Below are positions 17,776-46,971 of a stretch of DNA of 47,677 bases, piece after piece; position 1 is the first letter of the stretch, and each line of letters begins with the position of its first letter. The DNA is taken from positions 1 through 47,677 of the IMG/VR virus record IMGVR_UViG_3300031707_000030, one strand, 5' to 3'. Below the pieces are notes generated by a model. It saw only the letters and a list, made by a program, of their open reading frames with translations, had not been told where the DNA came from and did not search any database. Origin of the DNA: a virus. The translations under genes and the position numbers were made by a program.

Positions 17776-18576
17776 ATGGGGCCGAAGTCTAAGATCGAGT
17801 GGACCGAGGCGACTTGGAATCCGTCAACAGGATGCACGAAGGTCTCAGCGGGCTGCAAGAATTGTTATGCTGAGCGAACGGCTGTGAGGCTTAAGCAGGC
17901 AGGAGCTCCGAAGTATCGCCATGGATTTCAGTTCACGATCCATCCTGATACCCTAGACATTCCGATCAGATGGAAACGCTCCCGGCTGATCTTCGTCAAT
18001 TCGATGAGCGATCTCTTTCATGAAGAGATGCCTGTGCATTTCCTAGATTCATGTTTCAGCGTCATGGAGAAGGCTGACTGGCATATCTATCAAATTCTTA
18101 CGAAGCGACCTGAACGAATGTTTCAGTATGGCAGCGCTCACTATGGTTTCAGAGTTGGAGTCTTTGCGCCTGAGCATATCTGGATGGGTGTGACTGTTGA
18201 GGATGCGAGTGTCAAGCGTCGAATTGACATCTTGCGGCAGATGCCTGTATCTGTTCGATTCGTGAGCTGTGAGCCTTTGCTCAGTTCGTTAGGAACACTC
18301 GATCTGTCAGGGATTTCCTGGGTGATTGCAGGCGGAGAATCTGGCCCGAACTTCAGGCCGATGGATCCTGATTGGCCTCGTGAGATCCGCGATCAATGCC
18401 AAGCACAAGGCGTCCCTTTCCTCTTTAAACAGTGGTCTGCCGTGAGACCGAAAGCTCTGGGAAGAGACCTTAATGGGAAGATTTGGAACGACTATCCAGA
18501 GGCCGCAGCAAGTAGGCTCCGTAGACCGCTCGACCAGACTTCCCCCCGAACGCTCGACCAATTCGCCAAGACTTGA
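17776..18576 (+). CDS. Phage Gp37/Gp68-type protein (DUF5131)
   Basis: 266 aa. Opens with the family signature KIEWTEATWNPSTGC, followed by C...C..C with CKNCYAE, giving a three-Cys radical-SAM-like cluster; later ILTKRPERM, GVTVED and ISWVIAGGESG are also family landmarks. Known from phages and mobile elements; reaction unknown. ATG behind a GGTGAG site. The last 107 nt overlap the convergent methyltransferase gene. Confidence 0.85.
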   Translation: MGPKSKIEWTEATWNPSTGCTKVSAGCKNCYAERTAVRLKQAGAPKYRHGFQFTIHPDTLDIPIRWKRSRLIFVNSMSDLFHEEMPVHFLDSCFSVMEKADWHIYQILTKRPERMFQYGSAHYGFRVGVFAPEHIWMGVTVEDASVKRRIDILRQMPVSVRFVSCEPLLSSLGTLDLSGISWVIAGGESGPNFRPMDPDWPREIRDQCQAQGVPFLFKQWSAVRPKALGRDLNGKIWNDYPEAAASRLRRPLDQTSPRTLDQFAKT

Positions 18577-38450: not shown

Positions 38451-38498
38451 ACTAGGTAATATCTAGGCAAGCACAAGCTATATAAGCTTTTACCTAGT
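38451..38498. promoter_or_regulatory. Bidirectional promoter with inverted-repeat operator
   Basis: Perfect 9-bp inverted repeats ACTAGGTAA (38451-38459) and TTACCTAGT (38490-38498) bracket a near-palindromic TATA element GCTATATAAGC (38477-38487). A further partial copy, TATCTAGGC, lies between. The TATA is about 35 nt from both divergent starts, at 38441 and 38518. Both genes encode RHH proteins, so binding to the repeats probably represses both directions. Confidence 0.65.
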
Positions 38499-38517: not shown

Positions 38518-38682
38518 ATGCCTCAAGCTAAAGGATGGAAGACCATAGCCTTGCCGGAAGAACTCATACAGAAGATAGACAAGATGGTCGATTCGCAGCA
38601 GCACGGCTACCGCAGCCGAAACGAGTTCGTCACCGACGCGGTTCGCCGGAGGCTTGAAGAACTAAAAGCATTGGCACGCTGA
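38518..38682 (+). CDS. RHH regulator, 54 aa
   Basis: WKTIALPEELIQKIDKMVDS then YRSRNEFVTDAVRRRLEEL; a clear CopG/MetJ-like core. First plus-strand gene from the shared promoter, with a very short leader. Confidence 0.7.
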   Translation: MPQAKGWKTIALPEELIQKIDKMVDSQQHGYRSRNEFVTDAVRRRLEELKALAR

Positions 38683-38738
38683 CATGACGGTAAGACTATT
38701 ATGCGCTACTCGTACTTGACCCATCTAGGCGTTACCGG

Positions 38739-38915
38739 TTGAGGACAGCCATCCCGGGTCGAGGCAGATTCGTTTCCGTCAGCATCCCAGAGGAACTGAT
38801 CAAGGAGATAGACAAGATCCTCGCGAGCCACAAGGGAGGCTACGAATCTCGACCGGAATTCATCAAAGAGGCAGTGCGCAAACGCCTAGAAGAGATCAAA
38901 GCTCTCGCCAAGTGA
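38739..38915 (+). CDS. RHH regulator, 58 aa
   Basis: TTG start 38739. RFVSVSIPEELIKEIDKILA then YESRPEFIKEAVRKRLEEIKA, closely related to the preceding RHH (same end, EE.KALA.), so the two look like a tandem duplication. Lies 4 nt before the ParB gene. Confidence 0.65.
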   Translation: MRTAIPGRGRFVSVSIPEELIKEIDKILASHKGGYESRPEFIKEAVRKRLEEIKALAK

Positions 38916-38919
38916 TAGC

Positions 38920-39735
38920 ATGGGAAACCAGAAAGAAGAGAGAGAAGCAATGATGTCTCAAGTCGAGACCGTTCCAATCAAAGAGCTGCGTGTTTCTCCG
39001 CTTAATGTCAGGAAAAGAGTGGGTGAGCTTGATGATCTGCAATCATCAATCAAGTCGATAGGACTTCTACAACCCATAATTGTGCGCGATGTTCAAGGGA
39101 AACTTGAGGTGGTTATTGGACAAAGAAGGTTTCTCGCTTGCAAGGCTCTCGGTTGGGATACAATTCCGGCAGTCAGACGAAAGCTCAGTGACAGGGAGGC
39201 GCTGATCTTGTCGTTGACTGAGAATGTGCAGATGGACTCACTAGATCCAATTGACAGAGCTGAAGGCACCGAGAAGCTGATCAAGGATCTAGAAAAGGAG
39301 ATGCCTAGAACCAAGGCGGTGGATATAGCAGCTACAACCCTTGGTAAAGGGTCAAGCACGATCTACGATTGGTTGCGCCTACTTGAGACAACCGAGGCGG
39401 TAAAGAGAATGGTTCAAGAGAAAAGAATGGAGATAGAGATAGGGGCGAGACTGGCTTCTCTTCCCAAGCGGCAACAGACAGAGGTGGCAAAAGTCATTCA
39501 GGAGGAGAGCCTTCCCAGATCTCAAGCAGCAAAGGTCATAGATTATGTTGGCAGGCAGCCCAAACTGCCAGCAAGAGAGGCGATCAAAACCTTTCTGAGG
39601 GAGACAGAGGAATACTCTGTGACCGTTTCTCTGTCCGGTTCACTCTATAGGGCTCTTTCTGAGTTTGCGCGGACAAGAAAGCTCACAGTACAGGAGATAA
39701 TTCGAAGAGCGATCAGGAAATTCCTCGGATCATGA
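38920..39735 (+). CDS. parB: ParB-family protein with C-terminal RHH
   Basis: 271 aa. N-terminal ParB/Srx-type CTPase domain: VSPLNVRKRVGELDDLQSSI, LQPIIVRD, and VIGQRRFLACK with GQRR in place of the usual GERR; LTENVQMDSLDPIDRAEG follows. Then a helix-turn-helix near 130-160 (GKGSSTIYDWLRL). The last 45 residues (YSVTVSLSGSLYRALSEFA) form an RHH-like dimer domain. No ParA follows, so it may regulate the genes behind it instead of DNA partition. The next gene overlaps by 4 nt. Confidence 0.8.
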   Translation: MGNQKEEREAMMSQVETVPIKELRVSPLNVRKRVGELDDLQSSIKSIGLLQPIIVRDVQGKLEVVIGQRRFLACKALGWDTIPAVRRKLSDREALILSLTENVQMDSLDPIDRAEGTEKLIKDLEKEMPRTKAVDIAATTLGKGSSTIYDWLRLLETTEAVKRMVQEKRMEIEIGARLASLPKRQQTEVAKVIQEESLPRSQAAKVIDYVGRQPKLPAREAIKTFLRETEEYSVTVSLSGSLYRALSEFARTRKLTVQEIIRRAIRKFLGS

Positions 39736-40721
39736 ATCTCTCTCCGGAGAGAAATTCCATGTTGGGGGTGCGTACCGCCGAATACACCATGCTCAATGGG
39801 TCGAAGAACGAGCTTGTTAAACAAATTGGAGACGGCTCCATAATCAAGCGCTTCGACATGACGCCCTTCCCAGTCGGAGGGTCTGACATTGTTTGTCCTC
39901 ACTTTCTGGAATTGAAATGGGCTACTGGATGCCCTTTCGACTGTGCTTGGTGCTATTTGAGGGGCACGATGCGCCATTATCCGCGAAAGAAGAATCCGAC
40001 GTACAAAAGCCGTGAAAAAGTCAGGTCCCACCTACAGCGTTTCTTCAGAGTTGACTACCCTGCCGAGAAAGAAGTCTTGAATACTGGCGAACTTGCGGAC
40101 TCTCTCATGTCGGAACATACGAATACTCCTTTTTCGAGATTCGTCGTTCCTCTGTTTGAGACCCAACAGAGACACAAAGTCCTGTTCTTGACAAAGAGTC
40201 CTTCGGTAGATAACCTCTTGAGAATGAACCCACATAACCAAGTGATAGTGAGTTTCAGTCTGAACTCGGAAGCTGTTGCCAACAGGTGGGAGAGAGCCCC
40301 ATCAGTAGCCAAGAGAATTGAGGCGGCAGCAAAGGCATTCGAAGCAGGTTACGAAACTAGGATAAGAATAGATCCTATAGTCCCTTATCCGGAAACTGAG
40401 TGGCCCAAGCACTATCGCAAACTCATCGACAGCATCTTTTCCAATCTATATCCGGAGAGAATCACTCTTGGCTCTCTTAGGGGTCTACAGAGCACAATCA
40501 ATGAGGCTGTGGACAAGTCTTGGGTCGATTGTCTGAGAGAACCATCAAAGTGGGGCAAGAGGATACCATCGGAGCTTCGATACCGAACCTTCGAAGTAAT
40601 ATTGAACCATCTAGTAGAACACCATGGTTACAGTAACGTATCCCTCTGTAAGGAACCTGTGATGATATGGGAAAAACTAGGGCTGAATTGGAAAAACTGC
40701 GCCTGTAATTGCGTGTGGTAG
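39732..40721 (+). CDS. SPL-like radical SAM protein
   Basis: 329 aa. Cluster CPFDCAWC (Cys67, Cys71, Cys74) and landmarks of the spore-photoproduct-lyase-like group: ELKWATGCPF, FLTKSP near 165, and RIDPIVPYPETEW near 215. Extra Cys near the C-terminus (NCACNCVW) might bind a second cluster. It overlaps ParB at the start and TcmP at the end. In other genomes such proteins occur next to TcmP-type partners; the substrate is unknown, although the SPL group includes nucleic-acid-acting enzymes. Confidence 0.75.
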   Translation: MNLSPERNSMLGVRTAEYTMLNGSKNELVKQIGDGSIIKRFDMTPFPVGGSDIVCPHFLELKWATGCPFDCAWCYLRGTMRHYPRKKNPTYKSREKVRSHLQRFFRVDYPAEKEVLNTGELADSLMSEHTNTPFSRFVVPLFETQQRHKVLFLTKSPSVDNLLRMNPHNQVIVSFSLNSEAVANRWERAPSVAKRIEAAAKAFEAGYETRIRIDPIVPYPETEWPKHYRKLIDSIFSNLYPERITLGSLRGLQSTINEAVDKSWVDCLREPSKWGKRIPSELRYRTFEVILNHLVEHHGYSNVSLCKEPVMIWEKLGLNWKNCACNCVW

Positions 40722-41611
40722 GCTTGGCTTACCTTCACATCAAAGAACATTCACACAGAAAGTACCGCATCCTTGACAAATATCTACGTGCTTGTGAAAG
40801 ATTCAGCAACAAGTATCAAAACTTCGCCTATATTGACACCCACGGCGGTTCGGGTAGGGTTCTAGATGTATGCACAGACGAACTAACAGATGGTTCGACA
40901 CTCATCGCCGCCAGAATCACGCCTAGCTTCCCATGCTACGTTGTAGAGATAGACCGCGTGAAGTACGAACTGCTGACGATGTCTACCAGAGAGCTTCCTA
41001 ATGTCAAAGCATTCTTTGGAGATTGCAACAGAAAGATCCATGGCATCCTAGCGACCATTGCCAAGGGCCAAATGTTCGTTTTCTGCTTCGTCGATCCTGA
41101 TGGACTAGTCTATCATGGAAAAGATGCCTCCTATGATGAACTGACTTGGAACACCGTTCAGGCGATTGCAACATTTCCGAGGACTGAGCTGCTTCTGAAT
41201 CTTCCATTACAGGCGATAATGGAATGTGCTGGGTATGTCCGCAACCTCCCAGACAATGCGGCGTCTCAAAAAATGAGAGAAAGAATGTCGACATTCTTCG
41301 GTACTGAAAAGTGGCAGGATCTGGACCCAGGAGACTACAAGGGTTTCATGAGGTTGTATGCCTCAGAAAGGTTGGAGCGACATTACCAGTACATCGGTAG
41401 CATACTTGTCAGAAATATCATGCGAGGCCCCCAATACTATCTTCTGTACGGCTCCAAGAGCCTCATGGGAGGACAGATAATGAGGGACATAATGAAGAGG
41501 GAGTATATGACTACGGTAGGGGTTCCTCTAACAAGACACCAGCACAAGACCGACAAGGAGTGGCTGGATGCGGAGTATCCTCTGAATCAACCTTTCTTCT
41601 TTGAAGACTAG
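40709..41611 (+). CDS. tcmP: Three-Cys-motif partner protein TcmP
   Basis: 300 aa from TTG 40709. HSHRKYRILDKYL, then YIDTHGGSGR (41-50), VVEIDRVKYE near 78 and FCFVDPDGL (126-133) are TcmP landmarks; the same elements follow the Rossmann methyltransferase plan (motifs I, II, IV). TcmP is defined as the neighbour of three-Cys radical-SAM-like proteins; its activity is not established. Overlap with the radical SAM gene supports a functional pair. Confidence 0.8.
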   Translation: MRVVGLAYLHIKEHSHRKYRILDKYLRACERFSNKYQNFAYIDTHGGSGRVLDVCTDELTDGSTLIAARITPSFPCYVVEIDRVKYELLTMSTRELPNVKAFFGDCNRKIHGILATIAKGQMFVFCFVDPDGLVYHGKDASYDELTWNTVQAIATFPRTELLLNLPLQAIMECAGYVRNLPDNAASQKMRERMSTFFGTEKWQDLDPGDYKGFMRLYASERLERHYQYIGSILVRNIMRGPQYYLLYGSKSLMGGQIMRDIMKREYMTTVGVPLTRHQHKTDKEWLDAEYPLNQPFFFED

Positions 41612-41643
41612 ACTATGAAAACATTCGATGGAATGAAGACAGA

Positions 41644-42183
41644 ATGCATAGAATAAAAGTAGCGATGTTCGCTCCAGACCCTCATAGAATGCCAAAGAAC
41701 CTAGATGAGAAAGTGGACAGGCTCTATGGCAAGAATGTCGCATTAGAATTTTGCTTCTACTGGGAGCCTCCCACCGTTGAAGAGATGAGAGCCACAGGGG
41801 TATGTGATAAACTCGCTGAAGTGTGTTGGCAAGAGCATGATGTCAAAGATTTCTACTGCAAAACTCAGATCAGCTCACTGATTGAAAGAGTTGCCAACTA
41901 TGAGTATTTTCTCTTCTTGACTACTCAGAATCCGATTCTCCGGGGAACCCCTTGCGGCGTTGGAACTGGCTCTGTCGTTGGACATCTTGAAGGAAAGCAC
42001 TTAGCAGTCGCTCCTTTTTGGGATATGGAACACATACTCCATGAAGTCGGCCACATGATAGGTCTTGAACATTGCGAAGATGTAGATTGTGTAATGTACG
42101 AGGGCCATCTTCGTAGACAAAGTAGTTTATGCGAACGACATAGGAAAGAAGTACCGATGAACAGAGAAAAGGAAGTGCCCTAA
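41644..42183 (+). CDS. Archaemetzincin-like zinc protease
   Basis: 179 aa. HEVGHMIGLEHC (His133-Cys144), then C149-V-M151, is the archaemetzincin signature (HExxHxxGxxHC then CxM); one Cys, at 163, occurs where a final CxxC is expected. The N-terminal strand pattern also matches metzincins. No signal peptide, so intracellular. It follows TcmP by 32 nt and probably shares its transcript. Whether it cleaves proteins is not established for the family. Confidence 0.75.
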   Translation: MHRIKVAMFAPDPHRMPKNLDEKVDRLYGKNVALEFCFYWEPPTVEEMRATGVCDKLAEVCWQEHDVKDFYCKTQISSLIERVANYEYFLFLTTQNPILRGTPCGVGTGSVVGHLEGKHLAVAPFWDMEHILHEVGHMIGLEHCEDVDCVMYEGHLRRQSSLCERHRKEVPMNREKEVP

Positions 42184-42339
42184 TCAGCAATTTTGTAAGA
42201 CTCGCTAACTACGAAACTATGAGACCAAGTCATAGCCGCCGGAGGCGAACAGCCGAGTCGAACAGCTACAAACCGAACAGAGCCCCTGCTCACATGGTTC
42301 GCCTATCGCGTCGAAGCATTTCCGTGCCCTCTCTTGTAC
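42184..42339. other. Spacer without a convincing gene
   Basis: About 155 nt after the metalloprotease gene. One frame stays open into the next gene but holds no ATG, GTG or TTG until just before 42340. No repeat or terminator was clear. Confidence 0.4.
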
Positions 42340-42567
42340 ATGGACTCATGCCCAGTCGCTGTCATTCATCGAGGTCTTCCGCTAGCATGGGCAACCCAAC
42401 TGGATTGGTCCAAGCCGTGCCCGAGGGACTCGATCTTCCTTTGCCCGCCGATCACTGTACTAACAGTGGACTGGTTCGGGTTGACGATAGATCTGTTGGC
42501 TTGGATCCTCCTCTTCGCTGCCATTCTTGCTCTACTGATTTACAGGCGTCACTCGCCCACTAGATAG
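42340..42567 (+). CDS. Small tail-anchored membrane protein
   Basis: 75 aa from ATG 42340 (TTG 42334 adjacent). N-terminal soluble part with VIHRGLPLAWATQLDW, then one membrane helix (LLAWILLFAAILALLIY) and a basic end. Could be viral or chromosomal. Ends TAG, with a second TAG soon after. Confidence 0.45.
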   Translation: MDSCPVAVIHRGLPLAWATQLDWSKPCPRDSIFLCPPITVLTVDWFGLTIDLLAWILLFAAILALLIYRRHSPTR

Positions 42568-42822: not shown

Positions 42823-42860
42823 GGAAGCGGAGAGCTAGACGTAAGTGTGTCAAATATGTG
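42823..42860. repeat. 38-bp direct repeat, left copy
   Basis: Identical over 38 bp to 46880-46917; the bases just outside differ (C versus G on the left, G versus T on the right). It bounds the restriction-modification island. Both copies lie in a frame that reads SGELDVSVSNM, but coding is uncertain. Confidence 0.9.
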
Positions 42861-42981: not shown

Positions 42982-43006
42982 GGTTCAAATCCGGGTGCCC
43001 GCACCA
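42982..43006 (+). other. tRNA 3'-end fragment, candidate attachment site
   Basis: The 25 nt from GGTTCAAATCC to CGCACCA fit the T-loop (TTCAAAT), the T-stem 3' strand (CCGGG), an acceptor strand (TGCCCGC), discriminator A and CCA. The 5' side does not complete the T-stem, and no D or anticodon arm is upstream, so it is a fragment. A full gene would start with GCGGGCA. Such fragments mark the distal end of elements integrated in tRNA genes. Confidence 0.55.
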
Positions 43007-43095
43007 AGGGACCCACACCACCACCATGCTTCTTCCGTCAGTCTGAAAAGCGTGGACTGCGCAATGCATGAGCACTCTCAGCGGAGTGTCTTACA

Positions 43096-45195
43096 GTGAC
43101 GCAATCTGCCCCTCCAAAATTCGAGCAGCGTCTCAAACGATACCTAGAAGATGTCCAGAGGCAAAATTCCGAGGCAGGAAAAGCGTACCTCTATCTTGAG
43201 TTCGTGCGTGACGTGTTCAGCCAAATAAACGTGGACTACATGGAGCAGCTCTATCCCGACCTTGAAAGATACATGAAATACAAGTCGAAGACGCTCGTTG
43301 TGAAAGGCAAGCCCGATGCTTTCCTAAGCAACGTGATTGTCGAGTTCAAGATAGAACTAACCAAACCCGCTCGCGAAGAAGCCGAAGCCGAACTGCGAAA
43401 ATACATAGCAATCTTGTGGTCAAAGCAAGGGAAGAGCAGAGTCGCATACGTCACCGTTGCGACAGACGGGATTGACTCTATTGTTTACAGACCAAGAACC
43501 TCAGTATCTTCTGGAGAAGAGGTTCCGCCTGACGCAGTCTCATTAGACATCATAGACCGCCTTGCCCTAAACAAAGCTAGCCCAGGTCAGGTCTTCATCT
43601 GGCTTGACCGCTATATGCTCTATCGCACGCTGACGGTTGCGACAGCCGAGGGGATTTCGGACGAGTTCGGCTTGGGGAAATCGGCATACAATGATACCTT
43701 GCCGCTTATTGAGAAGGCTTGGGAAGAGACGAAAGAAAAGACCCTCTATGAGCAATGGGCATCCTATCTCCGCATCGTCTACGGCACCAAAGTTGAGTCT
43801 GAAGAACTGTTCCTCAGACACGCCTACCTGGCAACACTGGCAAAACTGATGGCTTACGCGACAATGTCAGGTGGAGCTCTTCCCATCTCTGAAGAAGAGA
43901 TAGTAAGGATTCTTGAAGGTGACAAGTTCAGTCAGGAATGGGGCATATGGAATTTCGTAGAAGAGGATTTCTTCTCTTGGGTGGCACGAGACCCGAATGG
44001 AATCCAAGCGACACAAAACCTGCTTGAGAGAATCTCTTCATACGACCTCACGAAGATAGATGAGGACATACTCAAGGGACTCTATCAAGGTCTTGTAGAT
44101 GCAGAAGAGCGTCACGATCTAGGCGAGTACTACACTCCAGACTGGCTTGCCGAATATGTGGTCTTGAAGACCCTTGCCCATAACACCTCTGGAAGTGTCC
44201 TAGATCCAGCCTGTGGGTCTGGGACATTCTTGGCGGCAGCGATCCGCGCCAAGAAGAACTCTCTAGCAGGAAAGATGACGGGAAGGAAGCTTCTAGAGCA
44301 TATCATAGCAACGGTCGCAGGAATCGACATTCATCCTCTCGCCGTCTTGATGGCGCGTACATCATACTTGCTCTCAATCGGTACCGAACTACTGAATCTG
44401 CGAGCAGGAGAGCTAGTCGTGCCTGTCTACATGGCTGATTCGATTCGGCTACCAGAAGAAAAACAAGCAGATCTGCGAGGCATTGAGTGCTTGACCGTGA
44501 ATGCAGACGGCGTCCAACTCAGAGTTCCGACAGTTATGACGAAAGATCCTGCCTTGGCAGACCCAGCGGTTGAAACCGCAAAACAGTATGCCAAGCTCAT
44601 CTTGAAAGGTGAAACACCCGAAGAACAAACGATTTTCAACGAACTCGTTCGGCGTAGTGAAGCACTCCGCAAACTGCTGCTGCAATCGAAGGAAGGAAAG
44701 TCGCTTGCAGGCGTAGTCCTTGCCTTGGCTCAGGACATGGCTAGCCTGATGAAGGCGAAGAAAGACACCATCTGGGGCTTCATACTCAAGAACAAATACA
44801 AACCCCTCTTTCTGCGAGATAGAAAGGTCGAGTTTCTGATCGGTAATCCACCTTGGCTGTCATATCGCTTTGTGGAGAGTCCTGACTATCAGGAGTTTCT
44901 GAAGCACGCAATACTGACCGAGCATGCTCTTCTTGCGAAATCTGATGCTGAACTGATAACCCAGATGGAATTGGGCACACTCTTTTTCGTTCGCTGCGCC
45001 AGCCTATACCTGAAGCAAGGTGGTCGTATCGGTTTTGTTCTGCCAAGGAGTATTTTCACAGCGGGACAACACGATAACTTCCGGAGACTGAAATTCGTTC
45101 CACTCCTTGCCATTAGTCAGATCATAGACCTCTACGACGTGAGACCAATCTTCAAAATGCCTGCGTGCGTCGTGATTGCACATAAGGAGAAGTAG
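43096..45195 (+). CDS. Type IIG-like restriction-methylation subunit
   Basis: 699 aa from GTG. An N-terminal nuclease with GKPDAF (Asp74) and VEFK (Glu83, Lys85), a PD-(D/E)XK centre; then a helical domain; then an adenine-N6 methyltransferase with motif I DPACGSGTF near 372 and motif IV NPPW near 583, plus GLVDAEERHDLGEYYTP ahead of motif I, typical of type I and IIG enzymes. It ends just after the methylase fold (CVVIAHKEK), where one-chain enzymes continue into the target recognition domain, here the next gene. Confidence 0.8.
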   Translation: MTQSAPPKFEQRLKRYLEDVQRQNSEAGKAYLYLEFVRDVFSQINVDYMEQLYPDLERYMKYKSKTLVVKGKPDAFLSNVIVEFKIELTKPAREEAEAELRKYIAILWSKQGKSRVAYVTVATDGIDSIVYRPRTSVSSGEEVPPDAVSLDIIDRLALNKASPGQVFIWLDRYMLYRTLTVATAEGISDEFGLGKSAYNDTLPLIEKAWEETKEKTLYEQWASYLRIVYGTKVESEELFLRHAYLATLAKLMAYATMSGGALPISEEEIVRILEGDKFSQEWGIWNFVEEDFFSWVARDPNGIQATQNLLERISSYDLTKIDEDILKGLYQGLVDAEERHDLGEYYTPDWLAEYVVLKTLAHNTSGSVLDPACGSGTFLAAAIRAKKNSLAGKMTGRKLLEHIIATVAGIDIHPLAVLMARTSYLLSIGTELLNLRAGELVVPVYMADSIRLPEEKQADLRGIECLTVNADGVQLRVPTVMTKDPALADPAVETAKQYAKLILKGETPEEQTIFNELVRRSEALRKLLLQSKEGKSLAGVVLALAQDMASLMKAKKDTIWGFILKNKYKPLFLRDRKVEFLIGNPPWLSYRFVESPDYQEFLKHAILTEHALLAKSDAELITQMELGTLFFVRCASLYLKQGGRIGFVLPRSIFTAGQHDNFRRLKFVPLLAISQIIDLYDVRPIFKMPACVVIAHKEK

Positions 45196-45199
45196 TAAC

Positions 45200-46381
45200 A
45201 TGCCGAAGTTCGATGCCGAAGTCATCTCGGGTAAGTTGCCTCAGAAGAATATGCGACTCAAGGCGGCAAAGCGACTGCTCAAAGTTGAGCCTACTAAGCT
45301 TGAGGTTTTCTCAATTGGTGACAGAACATTTCTGGAAGTAGCGGATTTTGCCAACGTGATGGAACTCATTGAGGCAAGACAAAGAAGCGACTACTATGAA
45401 TCCTTTGGTGCGGGTGCTGCCATTTACCCGAGGCAGTTTTGGTTTGTAGATGTTCTTGTCTCACCTCGCTTGGGGATCAATCCGCGGATGCCAGCTGTGA
45501 AATCCTCGCAACGAGCAATAACGCTAGCGAAGAAAGACTACGTCGGAGTTGAGATAGAGGGGCAGGTCGAGAGTGAATTCCTATTCCAAGCTACGACGGG
45601 TTCGGAACTCGTACCGTTTGGTCATTTGCCTTTTCCGTTGGTAGTTCTTCCTGTTGAGGCAAACTCAGCGACAGGAGGGAAATATAGAATCCTGGTCAGC
45701 GATGAGGCAAAGACGCGAGGGTTCAGTGGGCTCAAAGACTGGCTCTTGCAGGTTGAGCGCGTCTGGCACAGCAAGCGTGCGGAAAAGGCTGAAAGGCTAA
45801 CGGTCTATCAATGGCTCGACTACACAAGAAAACTAACACGGCAAACTTCCAGGGCGAGATTCAAAGTGCTTTACAATAGCTCTGGAACCTACCTAGTTGG
45901 TTGCGTTGCGCTCAATGGATCATTTGATGTGAAAGTCGATGACTCCAGCGTGAAATCCAACGGGGTCGTAGCAGAAATCACAACGTTCTATTGCGACATT
46001 GACAGTGAGGACGAAGCACATTACATCGTCGGTTTTCTGAACGCACCAATCATTGACAGACTAGTCAAGCCCATGCAAGCGAGAGGCGATTTCGGCGAGA
46101 GGCACATCCACAAGAAAGTGCTTGAGCTACCGATCCCAAAGTACGAACCTCATAACAAAACACACAAAGAACTCAGCGACCTAGCCAAGGCATGCGCGGG
46201 CAAAGTCGAGCAGGCGCTCCCTGCCTTGCGCGAGAAATATGATAGCATTGGCAAGATCAGGCAACTAATCAAAGAAGACCTGAGAGCCGAAATAGCCGAG
46301 ATAGATAAGCTGGCGAAGACAATCTTGCTCTCACGTCGCAAGGCTCAGAAGCTGGACAAACTCCTGCAATCAGATTCTTGA
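45200..46381 (+). CDS. Specificity / target-recognition subunit
   Basis: 393 aa from ATG 45200, behind AAGGAG that overlaps the end of the upstream gene. No restriction or methylase motif; the layout matches the C-terminal target recognition part of Eco57I-like enzymes, with GRLP-like SGKLPQKN at the start, a central TRD, and a long C-terminal helix bundle (KTILLSRRKAQKLDKLL). The ribosome site and own start show a true two-gene form and not a simple frameshift. Confidence 0.7.
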   Translation: MPKFDAEVISGKLPQKNMRLKAAKRLLKVEPTKLEVFSIGDRTFLEVADFANVMELIEARQRSDYYESFGAGAAIYPRQFWFVDVLVSPRLGINPRMPAVKSSQRAITLAKKDYVGVEIEGQVESEFLFQATTGSELVPFGHLPFPLVVLPVEANSATGGKYRILVSDEAKTRGFSGLKDWLLQVERVWHSKRAEKAERLTVYQWLDYTRKLTRQTSRARFKVLYNSSGTYLVGCVALNGSFDVKVDDSSVKSNGVVAEITTFYCDIDSEDEAHYIVGFLNAPIIDRLVKPMQARGDFGERHIHKKVLELPIPKYEPHNKTHKELSDLAKACAGKVEQALPALREKYDSIGKIRQLIKEDLRAEIAEIDKLAKTILLSRRKAQKLDKLLQSDS

Positions 46382-46872: not shown

Positions 46873-46971
46873 GATGCCGGGAAGCGGAGAGCTAGACGTA
46901 AGTGTGTCAAATATGTGTGCAAATGAGGCAACGTATTTTAACTTCTTGTCATTATCCGCGTGCGACTAGCA
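46873..46971 (+). CDS. Possible 32-aa ORF through the right repeat
   Basis: ATG 46873 follows GGAGAGAGAGG. The ORF runs through the right 38-bp repeat and ends TAG at 46969-46971, next to the start of the following gene. The left repeat copy can be read in the same frame. Weak candidate; could be chance. Confidence 0.2.
46880..46917. repeat. 38-bp direct repeat, right copy
   Basis: Identical to 42823-42860. It lies about 16 nt before a TATA-like element of the next chromosomal gene. Confidence 0.9.
46933..46940 (+). promoter_or_regulatory. Probable TATA box of the membrane gene
   Basis: GTATTTTA, within ACGTATTTTAACTT, is about 32 nt upstream of ATG 46972, fitting an archaeal promoter with a short or absent leader. 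Confidence 0.5.

What the first reader, a model, noticed from the sequence alone, without database searches (positions are those of the whole stretch)
38518..42183. ParB-RHH / radical SAM / TcmP / archaemetzincin operon
Seen: two tandem RHH genes, a ParB with a fused C-terminal RHH, an SPL-like radical SAM protein, TcmP and an archaemetzincin-like protease on one strand with 4-nt or similar overlaps between ParB, radical SAM and TcmP. Known: TcmP is named for being next to three-Cys proteins, its activity is unknown; archaemetzincin substrates are unknown. Inference: a nucleic-acid-modifying pair controlled by ParB/RHH, with a protease that could act as effector, makes a plausible undescribed defence, anti-defence or modification system. 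There is no ParA, so ParB is more likely a regulator or DNA-recognition part.
Basis: partly seen in the sequence, partly recalled or inferred. Interest (0 to 1): 0.8.

Follow-up and report, generated by a model that had tools for sequence, protein, structure and literature searches.

The report
Viral radical-SAM and methyltransferase gene cassette
An archaeal-type virus carries a swappable gene cassette whose core is a conserved pair of enzymes, a radical-SAM protein and a methyltransferase-like partner; a sister virus has a DNA restriction-modification system in the same slot, so the pair probably chemically marks nucleic acid in the virus-host conflict, while the protease next to it is only a local neighbour.

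Summary
The genes are real and correctly placed. The core is a two-gene module: an SPL-like radical SAM protein (CX3CX2C plus an invariant C-terminal CNC) and TcmP. In 45 loci of this radical SAM family, TcmP is within 1.3 kb in 36 (27/32 with enough contig on both sides; 0/20 in SPL controls), and the two are fused in two bacteria. TcmP folds like the rRNA N6-adenine methyltransferase RlmJ. A census of 44 TcmP loci finds a radical-SAM-type partner in 42, from three or four families that swapped repeatedly; DUF5131 is the usual one (PADLOC candidates PDC-M30/M41). ParB directly upstream recurs once outside the window, in a Thermoplasmatota-phylum genome whose TcmP is the window's nearest relative. 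The archaemetzincin never recurs beside the pair. A sister virus is identical up to the ATG after the RHH pair and resumes at 42.56 kb; in between it carries an EcoRII-type restriction-modification cassette. So ParB-rSAM-TcmP-M54 occupies an exchangeable R-M slot, and the RHH pair with its TATA box belongs to the slot. Best reading: a nucleic-acid-modifying module of the virus-host conflict, a new variant of an untested defence candidate. The four-part system with protease effector is not supported; the chemistry is unproven.

The parts
38478..38486 (+). archaeal-type TATA box of the slot promoter; conserved in sister virus G1435
   Evidence: read by eye
38518..38682 (+). RHH (CopG-like) regulator 1; part of the viral slot, shared with sister virus
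38739..38915 (+). RHH regulator 2; part of the viral slot, shared with sister virus
38923..42562 (+). exchangeable cassette: sequence unrelated to sister virus G1435, which carries an EcoRII-like R-M system between the same two borders
38920..39735 (+). ParB (ParB_N + HTH_ParB) with C-terminal RHH domain
39732..40721 (+). SPL-like radical SAM protein, CX3CX2C at C67/C71/C74, invariant extra cysteines C55, C306, C325, C327 (C-terminal CNC)
40709..41611 (+). TcmP, RlmJ-like class I SAM-dependent methyltransferase fold, motif Y-x-D-xxx-G-x-G (41-49) and DPDG (129-132)
41644..42183 (+). archaemetzincin-like (M54) metalloprotease; a passenger of this cassette on present evidence
42823..42860 (+). 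38-bp direct repeat, copy 1 (left border of the R-M segment)
43096..46381 (+). type IIG R-M enzyme in two overlapping frames (43096-45195 and 45176-46381); homologue of the 1078-aa enzyme next to TcmP-radical SAM in L011
46880..46917 (+). 38-bp direct repeat, copy 2
17776..18576 (+). DUF5131 (Gp37/Gp68), the usual TcmP partner, standing alone about 21 kb from the radical SAM gene; not shown to belong to the module

Best explanation
The core is a two-enzyme module, radical SAM + TcmP, with ParB as an accessory part in this lineage. Shown: the two genes are held together across bacteria, archaea and viruses, are sometimes fused, sit near restriction-modification genes more often than controls, and here occupy a virus slot that holds an EcoRII-like R-M system in a sister virus. 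Inferred: both enzymes work on the same nucleic acid. TcmP binds SAM in an RlmJ-like fold and holds or methylates a base; the SPL-like radical SAM protein makes a 5'-deoxyadenosyl radical and abstracts hydrogen from that base or its methyl group, so the pair installs (or removes) a complex base modification. ParB, a DNA clamp-type protein, would direct the pair to DNA. In the virus this most likely serves virus-host or virus-virus conflict: marking DNA against restriction or excluding competitors. DNA is favoured over RNA by context, about 60:40.
For: TcmP within 1.3 kb in 27/32 loci of this radical SAM family against 0/20 SPL loci (Fisher p 4e-10); fusions of 730 and 695 aa. 42 of 44 TcmP loci have a radical-SAM-type partner, with 17 partner changes on the TcmP tree. 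TcmP fold: pLDDT 81.5, pTM 0.83; the top 14 PDB matches are RlmJ or its family DUF519, best E 3.9e-8. R-M genes within 6 kb in 9/32 against 0/20 (p 0.009). Slot exchange with C5-MTase + HhH-GPD + EcoRII-C + HATPase. DISARM DrmA/DrmB beside a distant CNC radical SAM. TcmP and DUF5131 are PADLOC candidates PDC-M30/M41. ParB-rSAM-TcmP in L157.
Against: No activity is known for TcmP or this radical SAM family; none was found in the literature searched. RlmJ acts on RNA, and fold similarity does not give the substrate. R-M neighbours are present in a minority of loci, and the controls come from one phylum. TcmP's motif IV is DPxG, not the DPPY of RlmJ (own knowledge). The slot comparison rests on one sister contig. 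ParB adjacency is known from one other locus. The fusion model was too poor to show an interface.
Confidence: 0.5

Rival explanations
1. The pair modifies RNA (rRNA or tRNA), either as an immune effector that disables translation or as RNA modification/repair; the closest fold, RlmJ, is an rRNA N6-adenine methyltransferase.
For: RlmJ is the top fold match and also the top profile match, weakly (E 0.24). DPxG motifs are known in tRNA methyltransferases such as Trm1 (own knowledge).
Against: SPL, the nearest solved relative of the radical SAM protein, acts on DNA (own knowledge); R-M and DISARM neighbours, the R-M slot and ParB point to DNA.
Confidence: 0.25
2. DNA repair: an SPL-like photoproduct or base-damage repair enzyme with a helper.
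For: Radical SAM protein matches spore photoproduct lyase; ParB-N genes also lie just upstream of SPL genes in 8/20 Desulfobacterota-phylum loci.
Against: Scores far below the SPL cut-offs (76.8 against 400; 40.4 against 437.55). SPL controls never have TcmP. Patchy spread (12/394, 11/293 genomes) and R-M neighbours fit mobile conflict genes better.
Confidence: 0.12
3. One reading: modifying pair plus protease effector under ParB/RHH control.
For: Same strand; M54 lies 32 nt after TcmP and inside the same exchanged cassette.
Against: M54 beside the pair in 1/45 loci, the window itself; in L011 and L014 an archaemetzincin lies 6.0 and 4.0 kb away beyond other genes; the RHH pair is shared with a sister virus that has an unrelated cassette.
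Confidence: 0.05
4. Host-restriction evasion only: the virus marks its own DNA, with no exclusion function.
For: Virus location; the sister's slot holds a DNA methyltransferase.
Against: The sister's slot also holds an EcoRII-type endonuclease, and the pair is common in cellular genomes.
Confidence: 0.2

Closest known systems
PADLOC phage-defence candidates PDC-M41 and PDC-M30 (TcmP + DUF5131)
   Same: The window's TcmP matches PDC-M41A (E 2.2e-10); relatives match M41A or M30A; DUF5131 matches M41B and M30B; adjacent or overlapping two-gene layout.
   Different: Adjacent partner is an SPL-like radical SAM protein that matches no PADLOC model, plus ParB; DUF5131 is about 21 kb away. These candidates have no tested function that I found.
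Spore photoproduct lyase (SPL, radical SAM)
   Same: CX3CX2C core and SPL-like barrel (PF20903 61.6 bits; PDB 4rh0, 4fhe by profile, E about 4e-15).
   Different: Far below TIGR04070/TIGR03886 cut-offs; invariant C-terminal CNC and other extra cysteines; partner TcmP, never seen beside SPL.
RlmJ, 23S rRNA (A2030-N6) methyltransferase
   Same: Fold: top 14 PDB matches of the TcmP model are RlmJ or its family DUF519, best E 3.9e-8, TM about 0.5.
   Different: 13-14% identity; DPxG in place of RlmJ's DPPY motif (own knowledge); nearly always paired with a radical SAM protein.
EcoRII-type R-M cassette of sister virus G1435
   Same: Occupies the identical slot after the same RHH pair and ATG.
   Different: C5-MTase, HhH-GPD glycosylase, EcoRII-C endonuclease, HATPase; no gene in common with the window cassette.
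Type IIG restriction enzymes (Eco57I-like)
   Same: Next to TcmP-radical SAM in L009, L011, L014, L017, L132, L133, L167 and 2.4 kb downstream in the window.
   Different: Separate enzyme; in the window it is in two frames and lies between its own 38-bp repeats.

Membership tests
TcmP (TIGR04474) | score above the curated cut-off of 53 bits | tested here: met
   109.6 bits
TcmP (TIGR04474) | encoded next to a three-Cys (radical-SAM-type) partner | tested here: met
   radical SAM overlaps by up to 13 nt; partner general in 42/44 loci
PADLOC PDC-M41/M30 | A component is TcmP | tested here: met
   PDC-M41A E 2.2e-10
PADLOC PDC-M41/M30 | B component DUF5131 adjacent | tested here: not met
   DUF5131 is at 17776-18576; the adjacent radical SAM matches no PADLOC model
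Spore photoproduct lyase | TIGR04070 / TIGR03886 cut-offs | tested here: not met
   76.8 against 400 and 40.4 against 437.55
Spore photoproduct lyase | CX3CX2C radical SAM motif | tested here: met
   C67, C71, C74 invariant in the 19-row alignment
Spore photoproduct lyase | repair of thymine photoproduct | not testable with these tools
   needs enzymology
ParB partition protein | ParB_N and HTH_ParB domains | tested here: met
ParB partition protein | ParA partner next to it | tested here: not met
   no ParA among the neighbours scanned; the whole window was not searched with a ParA model
Archaemetzincin M54 | PF07998 gathering score | tested here: met
   27.5 against 24.4
Archaemetzincin M54 | NF033823 cut-off and full HEXXHXXGXXHCX4CXMX17CXXC signature | tested here: not met
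   30.9 against 145; X17CXXC absent
Restriction-modification system | restriction nuclease within the cassette 38923-42562 | tested here: not met
   no nuclease domain among its four genes
RlmJ | methylation of 23S A2030 | not testable with these tools
   fold resemblance only

The most novel reading that the evidence does not exclude
TcmP with interchangeable radical SAM partners is a widespread two-SAM-enzyme nucleic-acid hypermodification system: a methyltransferase-fold protein presents or methylates a base and a radical SAM enzyme with an extra Fe-S cluster adds a radical-made group. In this virus lineage a ParB clamp loads it on DNA, and neighbouring type IIG enzymes restrict unmodified or modified DNA.
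Probability: 0.2. Interest if true: 0.88.

Novelty: new variant of a known kind. Interest (0 to 1): 0.62.

Why it matters
TcmP is a common protein of unknown activity, listed as a phage-defence candidate through DUF5131. The data here suggest a general rule: TcmP goes with a radical-SAM-type protein whichever family supplies it, has swapped partners many times, and can be fused to it. Together with the RlmJ-like fold and the exchange with an R-M system, this makes the function testable (new base modification, defence or anti-restriction) in a simple two-gene expression.

Tried and rejected
Single-sequence scans of viral contigs with TcmP, radical SAM and M54 found no relative, and a CPxxCxWCYL pattern gave only chance hits; an alignment was needed. 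Phage records gave three weak TcmP hits and none for the radical SAM. AlphaFold of the TcmP-radical SAM fusion: pTM 0.42, not used. DUF5131 against the radical SAM profile: the motifs align (E 0.0086), but probability is only 4.7%, so common descent is suggested, not shown. A role for MTAP/MtnA (5'-deoxyadenosine salvage) was considered: seen only in Chloroflexota loci, probably a local gene order. The M54 gene as a fixed part was rejected. A four-gene RHH-ParB-rSAM-TcmP match in L157 was first read by eye; Pfam does not confirm its small first gene as RHH.
Full report
WHAT IS THERE. The window is an IMG/VR virus record of 47,677 bases, a tailed virus with portal and SU10-like capsid proteins. 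ParB and radical SAM overlap by 4 nt, radical SAM and TcmP by up to 13 nt, and the M54-like gene follows after 32 nt. An archaeal-type TATA box lies before the first RHH gene.

THE PAIR. A scan of 84,980 species genomes with the radical SAM protein gave 18 full-length or nearly full-length relatives of 46-58% identity in Chloroflexota, ANME-1 and related archaea, Thorarchaeota, Planctomycetota and others. The family is well conserved (68% mean column identity), with invariant CX3CX2C, CPHF, LCKE and C-terminal CNC, that is C55, C306, C325 and C327 besides the cluster triad. This would fit an additional Fe-S cluster (inference). Further searches added 12/394, 8/301, 11/293, 31/216 and 109/218 genomes in five phyla (the larger counts include distant kin and true SPL) and three viral contigs. 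Of 45 loci of the close family, 36 have TcmP within 1.3 kb; of 32 with enough contig on both sides, 27 do; of 20 SPL control loci, none (Fisher p 4e-10). The order varies (TcmP first, radical SAM first, or convergent), and two loci encode a TcmP-radical SAM fusion of 730 and 695 aa. Shared function is therefore more likely than inherited gene order.

TCMP IN GENERAL. A family search in two phyla gave 45 rows, 44 distinct TcmP loci (L264 and L275 are one locus). Of these, 20 lie beside DUF5131, 9 beside the close radical SAM family, 4 beside distant CNC/SPL-like radical SAMs (one truncated, L242), 9 beside COG1533-like radical SAMs (some of these, L251, L253, L262 and L274, rest on weak scores), and 2 have none in the flank. 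On a TcmP tree of 70 rows the three partner kinds need 17 changes (least possible 2); starred branches force at least 7 for the SPL-like kind. The tree is a quick one with several long branches, so the count is indicative. PADLOC lists TcmP as PDC-M41A/M30A and DUF5131 as PDC-M41B/M30B; the SPL-like partner matches no PADLOC model. Six literature searches found no tested function. A TcmP gene is listed beside the Hna defence gene of Sinorhizobium in an expression table (PMC12445080). The archaeal immune survey PMC12988326 states that most PDCs lack experimental validation.

STRUCTURE. The window's TcmP is predicted with pLDDT 81.5 and pTM 0.83. Its 14 best PDB matches are RlmJ, the E. coli rRNA N6-adenine methyltransferase, or its family DUF519 (best E 3.9e-8); a profile search points the same way, weakly. 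SAM-binding motif I and a DPxG motif IV are present. The fusion model was poor and is not used.

PARB. ParB lies directly upstream in only one other locus of the close family, L157, in a genome drawn from the phylum of the Methanomassiliicoccales MAG (Thermoplasmatota): ParB, radical SAM and TcmP in the window's order with the same kind of overlaps. L157's TcmP is the nearest relative of the window's TcmP on the tree (support 84), although its radical SAM is more distant (39% identity). ParB-N genes also sit just upstream of true SPL genes in 8/20 Desulfobacterota-phylum controls, and a ParB-N/N6-N4 methyltransferase fusion sits beside a CNC-tailed SPL-like gene in L161. So ParB-type proteins and SPL-like radical SAMs meet more than once; ParB is a plausible accessory, not a constant part.

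M54. Only the window has it beside the pair. In L014 and L011 an ordinary archaemetzincin lies 4.0 and 6.0 kb downstream behind MTAP, MetE-like and other genes.

THE SLOT. Seven sister viruses share the capsid protein at 72-94% identity. In sister G1435 the DNA is 97% identical over 1,022 bp up to base 38922, which is the ATG after the second RHH gene, and similarity resumes near 42563. Between these borders the sister has 5.2 kb with a C5 DNA methyltransferase, an HhH-GPD glycosylase, an EcoRII-C endonuclease and an HATPase; the window has 3.6 kb with ParB-radical SAM-TcmP-M54. The promoter and RHH pair thus belong to the virus slot, and the cassette behind them is exchanged. Further right, a type IIG R-M enzyme in two frames (43096-46381) lies between 38-bp direct repeats. 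Its 1078-aa homologue in L011 stands immediately upstream of TcmP-radical SAM.

DEFENCE NEIGHBOURS. R-M genes lie within 6 kb in 9/32 loci (7/21 with full flanks) against 0/20 controls (p 0.009). A distant CNC radical SAM follows DISARM drmA-drmB in L158. The controls come from one phylum, so the enrichment is moderate evidence.

HOW IT MOST LIKELY WORKS. Shown: a conserved, fusible radical SAM-TcmP pair; a methyltransferase-type fold; an R-M slot in the virus. Inferred: the pair modifies a nucleic acid base, more likely in DNA; ParB targets it; the virus uses it to evade restriction or exclude rivals. RNA modification is the main rival. Chemistry, substrate and phenotype are untested.

NOVELTY. 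TcmP with a three-Cys partner is a known kind (candidate defence). The SPL-like CNC partner family, the fusion, the repeated partner exchange and the ParB form are, as far as I could search, undescribed: a new variant of a known kind.

LIMITS. Most loci are from metagenome-assembled genomes with contig edges; phyla are those of the seed loci; the slot comparison rests on one sister contig; E-values in the small local searches are relative to those sets.

Noticed in passing
window 17776-18576: DUF5131 (usual TcmP partner) stands alone in the virus core; sisters G1434 (78%) and G1437 (47%) keep it.
   Followed up: partly
window 42823-42860 and 46880-46917: Exact 38-bp direct repeat bounding the type IIG R-M segment; sister G1435 has one copy (2 mismatches) followed by an F420H2-dependent reductase-like gene, perhaps host DNA.
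   Followed up: partly
window 43096-46381: The type IIG R-M gene is split between two frames with a 20-nt overlap; broken gene, sequence error or two subunits not distinguished.
   Followed up: no
window 42982-43018: tRNA-3'-end-like sequence (GGTTCAAATCCGGGTGCCCGCACCA), 83% alike over 36 nt to a place near the other end of sister G1437 (L208 11826-11861); possible attachment site.
   Followed up: partly
L114, L116-L119, L124-L127, L131: ParB-N genes directly upstream of spore photoproduct lyase-like genes in genomes of the Desulfobacterota phylum; no paper found that holds both terms.
   Followed up: partly
L009, L014, L016, L023 (and L011): In Chloroflexota loci the pair abuts or lies near MTAP, and in L016 also MtnA: methylthioadenosine/5'-deoxyadenosine salvage genes; 5'-deoxyadenosine is a radical SAM by-product.
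   Followed up: partly
L038-L040: Viral contigs with two tandem radical SAM genes (close and distant type) and a convergent TcmP; L040 also carries a type I R-M operon nearby.
   Followed up: partly
L158 2917-9412: CNC-tailed radical SAM gene directly after DISARM drmA-drmB.
   Followed up: partly
L006 (Gordonia phage BaxterFox gp42-gp43): TcmP-like hypothetical protein gp42 overlaps the annotated immunity repressor gp43 by 4 nt; no radical SAM annotated in the stretch shown.
   Followed up: no
L203 13249-17476: Sister virus EcoRII-like R-M with an HhH-GPD glycosylase and an HATPase in the same cassette.
   Followed up: no
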